Part shown: positions 16,468 through 19,340 of the stretch, in pieces
Numbering within the stretch: position 1 is the stretch's first letter
Layout of the letters: every line of letters starts with the position of its first letter
Origin: Ceraceosorus guamensis
Taxonomy: Eukaryota; Basidiomycota; Exobasidiomycetes; Ceraceosorales; Ceraceosoraceae
Reading direction: 5' to 3'
DNA: 25,483 nt
NCBI RefSeq assembly: GCF_003144195.1
Contig: NW_020290150.1
Location: forward strand, 1-25,483
The notes under the pieces: generated by a model
What the model saw: the letters and a program-made list of their open reading frames with translations, nothing else
What the model was told of the DNA's origin: nothing
Database searches by the model: none
Translations under genes and position numbers: made by a program

Positions 16468-19340
16468 ATGTCTTACGGTGGTTACGGCGGCGGCGGGTGA
16501 GTACAACTGCATGGAGATTCAGGATGCGTGCGTCGCCCTGCGTCTCATGGCCACCAAGTCGGCACTATTCCCATTGTGCTCTACTGGGCCGCCTCGTCTC
16601 GCACGTGGTCGATGCATTTCCTTATGGCCTTCGTGATCCTCGCGAGCAGTTGGGGATCATACGCTCACATTTCGTGCAAGCACATGCTCACATCCTCTCT
16701 TGCTTCGTCCTCTACAGATACGGCGGTGGAGGAGGCGGCTACGGCGGTGGCGGCTACGGCGGTGGCGGTGGCGGATATGGAAACGGAGGTGGTGGTTACG
16801 GCGGGGGCGGTGGTGGGTACGGCGGTGGTGGTGGAGGCTACGGAGGAGGTGGCGGAGGCTATGGCGGTGGTGGAGGCGACCGCATGGGTGGCCTCGGCAA
16901 CGGCCTTCGCACCGTCGACTGGAACTCTGCCAGCCTTACCCGTTTCGAAAAGAACTTTTACACGTGAGCGACGAGCTGATCGCTTTGACCAAGTGCGATT
17001 GTAGAAAGCTGACGCGCCATCCACTCATCCATCTCTGCCCACAGCGAGGACCGACGCGTGACTGCTCGGTCAGACAGAGAGGTGCAGGATTTCCGAGCGA
17101 AGAAGCAAATGACCATTGCCGGATCCAACGTCCCCAAGCCCGTGCAAACTTTCGACGAGGCTGGTTTCCCAGACTACATCATGTCTGAAATCCAAAAGAT
17201 GGGCTTCACCGAACCTTCTGCCATTCAATCCCAAGCTTGGCCCATTGCGCTCTCTGGTCGTGACATTGTTGCCATCGCCGAGACTGGATCGGGCAAGACG
17301 ATCGGTTTCGCTTTGCCAGCCATGGTTCACATCAACGCGTAAGTAGTCGCGAGACTTGGCAGCCGCCCGTCTTTCAGCTTACCCCTTCCTTTGCTCGCCC
17401 CAGACAACCTCTCTTGGCGCCCGGTGACGGTCCAATTGCGCTGATTCTCGCACCGACCCGTGAGCTGGCCGTCCAGATTCAACAAGAGTGCACCCGCTTT
17501 GGCGCCTCTTCAAGGCTCCGCAACACGGCAGTGTACGGTGGCGTGCCCAAGGGTCCTCAAATTCGCGACCTTCAACGCGGCGCGGAAATCGTCATTGCCA
17601 CTCCCGGTCGTCTCATCGACATGCTCGAGGCTGGCAAGCTCAACCTTCGCCGCGTCACTTACCTCGTCATGGACGAAGCCGATCGCATGCTGGACATGGG
17701 TTTCGAGCCTCAAATCCGTAAGATCCTTAGCCAGATCCGTCCCGACAAGCAGACTTGCATGTTCTCCGCTACATGGCCCAAGGAGGTTCAGCGTCTGGCC
17801 AACGACTTTTTGAACAACTTTGTTCAAGTCAACATTGGTTCCATTGGTCTTGCTGCTAACCACAACGTCAAGCAGGTCATTGAAGTCTGCACAGACTTTG
17901 AGAAGCGTGGACGTCTCATCAAGCACCTCGACACTATCAGCCAAGAAAATGCCAAGGTGCTTATCTTTACTGGCACGAAGCGCGTCGCTGATGATCTCAC
18001 AAGGTATCTTCGTCAAGATGGATGGCCCGCACTCGCGATTCACGGTGACAAGCAACAGCAAGAACGCGACTGGGTTCTATCGGAATTCAAGAGCGGTCGC
18101 AGTCCCATCATGGTCGCAACAGCCGTTGCAAGTCGTGGTCTCGGTACGTAGCGTTGCGAGACTTGGCTTCTTCTTCTTTTTCTTTGCCGCCTGTCGGGCA
18201 AATCTTTTGGGTGCTCTACATTTGGTGTGGCGGTCGCTTGGTCTTGCGGTTGCGGAAGGTGGATGGAAGGTGCAGGCGCGCGTGCCCACGCAGCGCCTCG
18301 TACAGGTGAGATCTTTAGCGGCGGCGATGAGACGCTTTGTGGTCCTGTGCCACGAACAGAGCTCGTGCCTCTCGTCGCCGTCATTGGCGTCGTCACTGCG
18401 ACTTCTCAGAGAAAAAAAAAGATCTCCTCTGCACAGACGGCGTAGACAGCAACACTCCAGGGTATGATCATCCACGCGAGGTGTGCCTGCTTGCTGTCGC
18501 GCTCGTTGCGAACAAGCGCGACGTTGCAGTGCGTTCGTTTACGCCTAGTACCTTCTAACCTGACGCATAGCGTCAAAGATCAAGTCTTTCCTTCTCTCTC
18601 TGCACCATCGCTCTCGCTCCTGCGGCTGTCACGAGTCGGGCATGATACCCACCGGCTCGTAGCAGGCGATTGGAGAGACGAGGCGTGCTTGCGGGAACGA
18701 CCTGCGTTGATTCACATCATGGCAAGCCAGACGCTCTAGCGCGGTGGTGGTTGACGCTGCGTACTCGTGGCAGCCGCTCGATTACCACCTCCACTCCAAA
18801 GGCAAGGCCCCTCATCTTCATGTAACATCCCCTTTTACCCACCTTTGTTGTTGACCTGCGCCCTCGAGATTTGCTCACTCTTTTCGTCGCACACGCTGCG
18901 TCGTCGCCGTCGTCTACGTCTTATTCACAGATGTCAAGGATATCGGATACGTTCTCAACTACGACTTTCCCACCAACACCGAGGATTACATTCATCAGAT
19001 TGGTCGTACGGGACGTGCGGGCGCCAAGGGCACTGCCATCACCTTTTTCACCACTGGGGATGCCAAATCAGCACGCGAGCTTGTCGGCATTCTTCGTGAA
19101 GCCAAGCAGGAGATTCCACGTGAGTATTGCGCAAACGGTAGGCTGCGGAAAAATTGAAAGCTGACCGTTTGGGATTCTTTTCCGCCCTCAGCCGAAGTCA
19201 TGGAGATGAGCTCTTATGGAGGTGGAGGCGGACGTGGCGGTGGCCGTGGCTACGGTGGTGGACGTGGTGGCCGCGGCGGCGGCGGCGGCTATGGTGGCAG
19301 CGGTGCGAACGCATACGGAGGGGGCGGAGGACGTTGGTGA
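16468..19340 (+). CDS. DBP2: DEAD-box ATP-dependent RNA helicase Dbp2 (p68/DDX5 family)
   Basis: RNA helicase that in yeast acts in mRNP assembly, rRNA processing and nonsense-mediated decay. Exons 16468-16496, 16718-16963, 17045-17338, 17404-18143, 18931-19119 and 19192-19340 give 548 residues. The N-terminal 80 residues are Gly/Tyr repeats. The core follows in order: FEKNFY linker, TFDEAGFPDY and the Q motif, AETGSGKT (170-177, motif I), PTRELA (207-212), TPGRLID, DEAD (280-283), SAT (311-313), FTGTKR, motif V, and HQIGRTGR (458-465, motif VI). ELAVQIQQEC, YGGVPK and QPLLAPGDGP are Dbp2-specific. Two oddities stand out: motif V reads VATAVASRGLD, with Ala430 where family members have Asp, and motif VI has Gln in place of the first Arg. 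A 787-nt intron splits motif V. The protein ends in an RGG/GGY tail with GGGGGRW. A further coding-like exon at 19554-19756 may be used in a longer form. Confidence 0.96.
16718..16880 (+). repeat. GGY-coding Gly/Tyr repeat in DBP2 exon 2
   Basis: Imperfect tandem GGCGGTGG-TAC-type units encode successive Tyr-Gly(3-6) blocks. It is an RNA-binding, phase-separation-prone low-complexity tail of a kind common in DDX5-like proteins. Copy number is likely variable. Confidence 0.85.
18144..18930 (+). other. Long conserved-position DBP2 intron (787 nt), inside motif V
   Basis: Donor GTACGT follows the first base of the Asp codon of RGL|D; the acceptor is TTATTCACAG. It is three to ten times longer than most other introns here. 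Budding- and fission-yeast DBP2 genes are known to have a single long intron at this place in motif V, and in budding yeast it mediates autoregulation of Dbp2. Internal landmarks are a joined acceptor-donor sequence TACAG|GTGAGA at 18302-18311, a TTCTAAC branch-like site near 18553-18559, and directly after it a perfect hairpin TGACGC-ATA-GCGTCA (18561-18575). I see no open frame or convincing snoRNA in it. Confidence 0.9.

What the first reader, a model, noticed from the sequence alone, without database searches (positions are those of the whole stretch)
18144..18930. Long DBP2 intron at the ancient, autoregulatory motif V position
Seen: a 787-nt GT-AG intron splits the Asp codon of RGL|D in motif V, while most other introns in the window are 55-250 nt. 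Known: budding- and fission-yeast DBP2 have a single long intron at this place, and in budding yeast it mediates negative feedback by Dbp2. Inference: the long intron and the feedback loop have persisted in this basidiomycete, so the intron body rather than the protein may be the selected regulator.
Basis: partly seen in the sequence, partly recalled or inferred. Interest (0 to 1): 0.75.

Follow-up and report, generated by a model that had tools for sequence, protein, structure and literature searches.

The report
Conserved, folded intron in DBP2
A fungal gene for an RNA-unwinding enzyme carries, at the spot where yeasts carry a known self-regulating intron, an unusually long intron that is predicted to fold tightly and would stop the protein short if it were not removed; this extends a known control device to another branch of fungi rather than revealing a new one.

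Summary
Observation confirmed. Intron 18144-18930 (787 nt, GT-AG, phase 1) splits the Asp437 codon of RGL|D in the DBP2/DDX5 gene of Ceraceosorus guamensis (spliced protein identical to the deposited 548-aa model). The gene's other introns are 65-221 nt; 787 is the largest of 68 gap estimates from this genome. Position and phase are old: of 120 length-capped relatives of exon 4, 102 read into an intron exactly here, in asco- and basidiomycetes, and an unplaced eukaryote (L061) has a 284-nt intron here beside 38-43-nt ones. Retention gives a stop at once (RGL-G-T-stop). New here, as prediction only: the donor is weak and the intron RNA is the most structured of 40 contig windows tested (z -3.4 to -5.1), its two ends pairing over the donor and the candidate branch site. 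Autoregulation was not testable; no relative's intron DNA was available, so covariation is untested. The fission-yeast Mmi1 motif (TNAAAC) is absent. Verdict: a new member of a known kind, the conserved DBP2 intron, with a testable structural hypothesis. That feedback persisted is plausible, not shown. Side find: Ustilaginomycotina Dbp2 carries paired changes in motifs V (ATD to ATA) and VI (HRIGR to HQIGR).

The parts
16468..19340 (+). DBP2/DDX5 gene, CDS with stop; exons 16468-16496, 16718-16963, 17045-17338, 17404-18143, 18931-19119, 19192-19340
   Evidence: Translation identical to deposited 548-aa C. guamensis protein; best solved relative is yeast DBP2, 8ark
18144..18930 (+). 787-nt GT-AG intron, phase 1, splitting Asp437 of RGL|D (motif V)
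   Evidence: spliced protein confirmed
18144..18149 (+). weak donor GTACGT (TCG|GTACGT)
   Evidence: Scores below 22 of 23 training donors in a small genome-specific matrix; consensus GTGAGT (training set biased towards consensus)
18149..18151 (+). in-frame TAG met on retention (RGL-G-T-stop)
18146..18159 (+). 5' arm over donor +3 to +16; pairs with 18887-18901 (9+5 bp)
   Evidence: P 0.87-0.89 intron alone, 0.97-0.98 with flanks; 0.84-0.99 in 16 temperature/flank settings
18887..18901 (+). 3' arm pairing with the donor region
18196..18214 (+). 5' arms of second and third end helices; 18196-18206 with 18866-18876 (11 bp), 18209-18214 with 18858-18863 (6 bp)
   Evidence: P 0.99 and 1.00
18858..18876 (+). 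3' arms of those helices, running up to the candidate branch site
18874..18878 (+). candidate branch site CTCAC (A at 18877, 53 nt from the acceptor G)
   Evidence: CTNAY match; assignment inferred, other YTNAY matches exist
18916..18934 (+). hairpin 18916-18921/18929-18934 over the acceptor AG
   Evidence: P 0.93 with flanks
18130..18139 (+). exon-4 arm predicted to pair with exon 5 18958-18967 (10 bp)
   Evidence: P 0.91

Best explanation
This is the conserved DBP2/DDX5 motif-V intron, and it most likely works as a slow-splicing, poison-on-retention brake on Dbp2 output. Shown: identical place and phase across many fungi; length about ten times that of the ordinary introns resolved here; weak donor; immediate stop on retention; a sense-strand RNA fold beyond chance in which the two ends of the intron pair across donor and candidate branch site. 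Inferred: because splice sites are weak and buried, splicing is slow, so a share of transcripts is retained or ends early and yields no helicase. Inferred from yeast: Dbp2 acts on its own intron and lowers productive splicing, closing a negative feedback loop. Not determined from sequence: whether Dbp2 here opens or stabilises the end helices, hence the sign of its effect, and which decay route removes the unspliced RNA.
For: Place, phase, length and stop. Same place and phase elsewhere: of 120 relatives of exon 4 listed, 102 read through with Gly as first residue (102 of 103 deviating tails that have a residue there), 14 read on with Asp, 4 other; 9 of 9 read-through ORFs with the Ustilaginomycotina-type ATA motif V; 18 of 25 organism-named models in that list are truncated by reading into the intron; L061 has introns of 43, 40, 38 and 284 nt, the last at RGL|D in phase 1. 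In yeast Dbp2 (8ark) the matching residue is D425, which fits an exon 1 of 1273 nt (length recalled, no call). Fold: z -4.44 (20 shuffles), -3.42 (60), -3.75 with 0 of 150 and, with 60-nt-block shuffles, -5.14 with 0 of 150; 39 other windows of the contig -1.87 to +2.88; reverse complement -1.76. End pairing: 2 of 5000 shuffles as good (p 0.0004), 1 of 410 z-normalised control pairs, 1 of 100 shuffles. Literature passages: yeast autoregulation through the intron and slow splicing (PMC5393171; PMC4191890), fission-yeast intron 2 poorly spliced and lowering mRNA (PMC4695336).
Against: No RNA-seq, CLIP or reporter data for this fungus. No covariation test possible. Raw duplex energies of the ends are not special against GC-richer segments (141 of 1226, 184 of 1228 and 496 of 2450 as good or better). 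Short path from donor to branch site is not special (21 of 100 shuffles as short) and donor burial only mildly so (10 of 100). The length cap of the protein search favours truncated ORFs, and gene finders may simply fail at long introns. Donor matrix is small and biased. Long introns up to 1,899 nt occur in Ustilago maydis (passage).
Confidence: 0.55

Rival explanations
1. An old intron that is merely retained and has grown long by drift; splicing is constitutive and efficient, and the fold reflects base composition.
For: No expression data; path shortness not beyond shuffles (21 of 100); raw end-duplex energies ordinary for the contig; long introns are known in smut fungi.
Against: Fold is the strongest of 40 windows and strand-biased, and beats all 150 local-composition shuffles; the same place is disproportionately long in L061 too; not a repeat.
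Confidence: 0.25
2. A decay-promoting intron of the fission-yeast kind: an Mmi1-like YTH protein binds motifs in the retained intron and sends it to the exosome.
For: Dbp2 intron 2 of S. pombe works so (PMC4695336, passages); two YTH loci in this genome.
Against: No TNAAAC in the intron, although only 0.28 would be expected at the contig's rate. Whether either YTH locus is an Mmi1 orthologue was not tested.
Confidence: 0.07
3. Early 3' end formation inside the intron, as proposed for budding yeast, sets Dbp2 output.
For: Poly(A) and termination signals lie within the yeast DBP2 intron (PMC4191890, passages; PMC5393171). Truncated gene models in several fungi would fit such ends as well as retention.
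Against: No AATAAA and one weak variant hexamer inside an A-run in this intron; fungal signals are loose, so this is inconclusive.
Confidence: 0.1
4. The intron hosts another RNA (snoRNA or other).
For: Length; structured.
Against: No Rfam match up to E = 5. Families not in Rfam cannot be excluded.
Confidence: 0.03

Closest known systems
DBP2 conserved intron of Saccharomyces cerevisiae (Barta & Iggo 1995; paper not held, known from passages of others)
   Same: Same gene, same residue by alignment to 8ark (D425), long, stop on retention
   Different: Autoregulation shown there, not here; no sequence comparison of the two introns was possible
dbp2 intron 2 of Schizosaccharomyces pombe (Kilchert 2015, PMC4695336, passages)
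   Same: Conserved intron of the orthologue, long, poison if retained
   Different: Mmi1 TNAAAC motifs there; none here
Zipper-stem introns of yeast, e.g. RPL7B (PMC12311795, abstract in listing and passages) and the survey PMC12350175 (abstract and passages)
   Same: Stems linking the 5' part of the intron to the branch-site region
   Different: Here helices lie over the donor and end 1 nt from the candidate branch A, closer than the survey's limits, so they would have to open for splicing

Membership tests
Conserved DBP2/DDX5 motif-V intron | Gene is a DBP2/DDX5 orthologue | tested here: met
   Deposited model identical; best relatives annotated DBP2; 8ark best solved hit
Conserved DBP2/DDX5 motif-V intron | Same position and phase in the RG(L/I)D codon | tested here: met
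   Phase 1 at D437; 102 of 120 ORFs read through here; L061 the same. Yeast phase rests on a recalled exon length
Conserved DBP2/DDX5 motif-V intron | Long relative to the genome's introns | tested here: met
   Largest of 68 estimates, median 93.5
Autoregulatory intron | Gene product lowers splicing or mRNA through the intron | not testable with these tools
   Needs expression data
Autoregulatory intron | Retention is non-productive | tested here: met
   In-frame TAG at 18149-18151
Mmi1-type decay-promoting intron | TNAAAC motifs in the intron | tested here: not met
   0 in 787 nt
Zipper stem (criteria of PMC12350175) | At least 6 bp, linker 42-85 nt in total | tested here: met
   Stem 18196-18206/18866-18876 starts 52 nt from the donor and ends 1 nt from branch A; stem 18209-18214/18858-18863: 65 and 14 nt
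[quoted passage not shown]
   First helix covers donor +3 to +16; the others end 1 and 14 nt from the candidate branch A. Depends on the inferred branch site
snoRNA host intron | A known small-RNA family inside | tested here: not met
   No Rfam match up to E = 5 in 16000-20500

The most novel reading that the evidence does not exclude
The intron is a helicase-sensed RNA switch: its two ends fold over donor and branch site, and Dbp2, by opening or annealing these helices on its own nascent transcript, sets the share of productive splicing; different fungi have kept the place while rebuilding the fold from different sequence, so the position is ancient but the switch is re-invented clade by clade.
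Probability: 0.15. Interest if true: 0.75.

Novelty: new member of a known kind. Interest (0 to 1): 0.42.

Why it matters
DBP2/DDX5 self-control through an intron is known from two yeasts. A basidiomycete case, an exact position-and-phase footprint in many more fungi and in one unplaced eukaryote, and a concrete fold would let one ask whether the control loop, and not only the splice position, is old, and whether a helicase reads the structure of its own intron.

Tried and rejected
Relatives' DNA: scans of viral contigs (21 loci, matching at 33-45% identity; none) and genome contigs (80 loci kept of 537) gave no fungal DBP2 gene that I recognised; I examined only three of these loci further (L061, L081, L098) and only L061 is a spliced eukaryotic gene. 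So no covariation test was made. Which eukaryote L061 is stayed open: nearest named proteins from algae, plants, chytrids and basidiomycetes are all near 60-64%.

Decoy donors: CAG|GTGAGA at 18306 first looked strong and is buried in the fold, but in the genome-based matrix it scores below the true donor, and 52 of 1346 GT sites on the contig's + strand score as high; dropped. A recursive (zero-length exon) site there was dropped too: no CTNAY match lies upstream of it.

Sequestering by shortened distance: not beyond shuffles. Raw duplex energies: not special. Both are told above.

Pezizomycotina-like tails with a repeated block (e.g. GSVLxxAALxALGVHT; exons 90-95% identical) suggest a conserved stretch inside the intron of some ascomycetes. 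This is translation only, the organisms of most rows are unnamed, and exon identity is high, so common descent may suffice.

Full report
WHAT IS THERE. The window is a contig of Ceraceosorus guamensis (name from the deposited identical protein). The gene at 16468-19340 encodes a 548-aa Dbp2/DDX5 helicase. The model has five coding introns of 221, 81, 65, 787 and 72 nt. The fourth, 18144-18930, begins GTACGT, ends TTCACAG and splits the Asp codon of motif V after its first base.

IS IT LONG. One search estimated 68 gaps between neighbouring exon matches of four Pfam families (hand-pasted rows: 137 of 157, 12 of 40, 8 of 64 and 10 of 90 matches). Median 93.5 nt; 787 is the largest. Of the other 11 estimates of 200 nt or more, 7 lie in one open frame and are insertions rather than introns. 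In one search, 19 of 25 chosen gaps could be resolved to GT-AG introns of 64-87 nt; these were chosen among short gaps, so they show the ordinary size, not the full range. U. maydis introns average 170 nt and range to 1,899 (PMC2219887, passages), so length alone is not unique.

IS THE PLACE OLD. I used a footprint in protein databases: gene callers that read through an intron leave a truncated ORF. Exon 4 as query listed 120 relatives, capped at 436 aa, which favours truncated ones. 102 read RG(L/I) then Gly, 14 continue with Asp, and 4 differ (P0135, P0147, P0150, P0179). Gly is what a phase-1 intron starting GT must give (G+GT). Of 103 deviating tails that have a residue at that place, 102 begin with Gly. 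Of 25 organism-named entries in the list, 18 are truncated so (among them Acaromyces ingoldii, Punctularia, Stereum, several Aspergillus and the glomeromycete Acaulospora), 5 read on with Asp and 2 differ. All 9 read-through ORFs with motif V of the ATA type that marks Ustilaginomycotina in my alignment fall in this class; tails of up to 96 aa show that some relatives also have introns of at least about 290 nt here. This proves presence in many lineages and says nothing on how often it is absent. Mis-spliced models at the same spot (P0009, P0050, P0052) agree. L061, a eukaryotic contig filed under a bacterial MAG, has introns of 43, 40, 38 and 284 nt, the long one at the same codon and phase; an identical JGI protein reads through there too (P0239; not independent). 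For S. cerevisiae the aligned residue is D425; that its exon 1 has 1273 nt, which gives phase 1 in codon 425, is recalled. Kilchert 2015 states that intron 2 of S. pombe dbp2 is conserved in S. cerevisiae and higher eukaryotes in position and length (passage), so the age of the place was known.

WHAT THE INTRON LOOKS LIKE. The donor TCG|GTACGT scores below 22 of 23 training donors (small, consensus-biased set). Reading through the donor meets TAG after two codons. The RNA folds better than shuffles: z -4.44 (20 shuffles), -3.42 (60), -3.75 (0 of 150), and -5.14 when composition is kept in 60-nt blocks (0 of 150). 39 other windows of the contig range from -1.87 to +2.88, and the reverse complement of the intron has -1.76. 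Nine other gap segments of the genome (several of them coding insertions) range from -1.7 to +2.5, introns 1 and 6 of this gene -1.0 and +1.7, the L061 intron -2.85. In the predicted fold the 5' end pairs with the 3' end in three helices (14, 11 and 6 bp) that cover the donor from +3 and run up to the candidate branch site CTCAC; a further hairpin covers the acceptor, and exon 4 pairs with exon 5 over 10 bp. The helices persist at 20-37 C and with 0-150 nt of flank (16 settings). End-to-end complementarity is matched by 2 of 5000 shuffles, 1 of 410 z-normalised control pairs and 1 of 100 whole-intron shuffles. Against the idea: raw energies are ordinary next to GC-richer segments, the short donor-to-branch path is matched by 21 of 100 shuffles and the burial of the donor by 10 of 100. 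L061's intron does not show the same end pairing in its fold.

HOW IT MAY WORK. Shown: conserved place, poison on retention, weak donor, structured RNA. Inferred: slow splicing with a non-productive share. From yeast: Dbp2 lowers its own splicing through the intron, and transcripts may end inside it (PMC5393171 and PMC4191890, passages); fission yeast degrades the retained form through Mmi1 (PMC4695336). The Mmi1 motif is absent here (0.28 expected), so that route is not supported. The helices fail the spacing rules that PMC12350175 gives for productive zipper stems, if the branch site is right; they look like a lock that must open rather than a splicing aid. Whether Dbp2 opens it or holds it closed, and so the sign of the loop, cannot be read from sequence.

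WHAT IS KNOWN AND WHAT IS NEW. The intron belongs to the conserved DBP2 motif-V introns by gene, place, phase and length. In the papers found, of which I saw listings and passages only, I met no description of this intron in a basidiomycete; the Ustilago maydis helicase survey (PMC12511879; 12 of 53 places shown) names the orthologue UMAG_10095 without mention of its intron in what I saw. This is no proof that none exists. New here are the read-through footprint and the predicted fold. The feedback itself remains to be tested.

Noticed in passing
window 18116-18143 and 18931-19010 (protein residues about 428-462): Motif V reads ATA instead of ATD and motif VI HQIGR instead of HRIGR. Among 238 proteins held, the 8 in which both sites were readable and motif V was ATA all have Q (Ceraceosorus, Testicularia, Tilletia, two unnamed), and 123 with ATD all have R: a paired, apparently Ustilaginomycotina-wide change in catalytic motifs of Dbp2. 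That DDX3-type helicases also have ATA is recalled.
   Followed up: partly
window 19333-19756: A further intron 19337-19553 (GTGAGA...AATAG) may lie over the stop codon: splicing there gives RWKRV-stop; a weak upstream donor at 19333 (read by eye) would instead add a Gly/Tyr/Asp-rich tail of some 67 residues. Possible alternative C-terminus; the deposited model stops at RW.
   Followed up: partly
L061:4289-5507: A spliced eukaryotic DBP2 gene with introns of 38-43 nt and one of 284 nt on a 54.8-kb contig filed under a Verrucomicrobiaceae MAG: contamination of a public bacterial genome record.
   Followed up: partly
P0151, P0163, P0171, P0175, P0203 (read-through tails): Recurring peptide block (A)GSVLxxAALxALGVHT-stop in the intron read-through of some fungi, at varying distance from the donor: possible conserved element inside their DBP2 intron. 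DNA not seen.
   Followed up: partly
window 2481-3278 (+) and 14481-15542 (-): Neighbouring genes: a TCP-1/cpn60 chaperonin exon and a family-2 glycosyltransferase exon.
   Followed up: no
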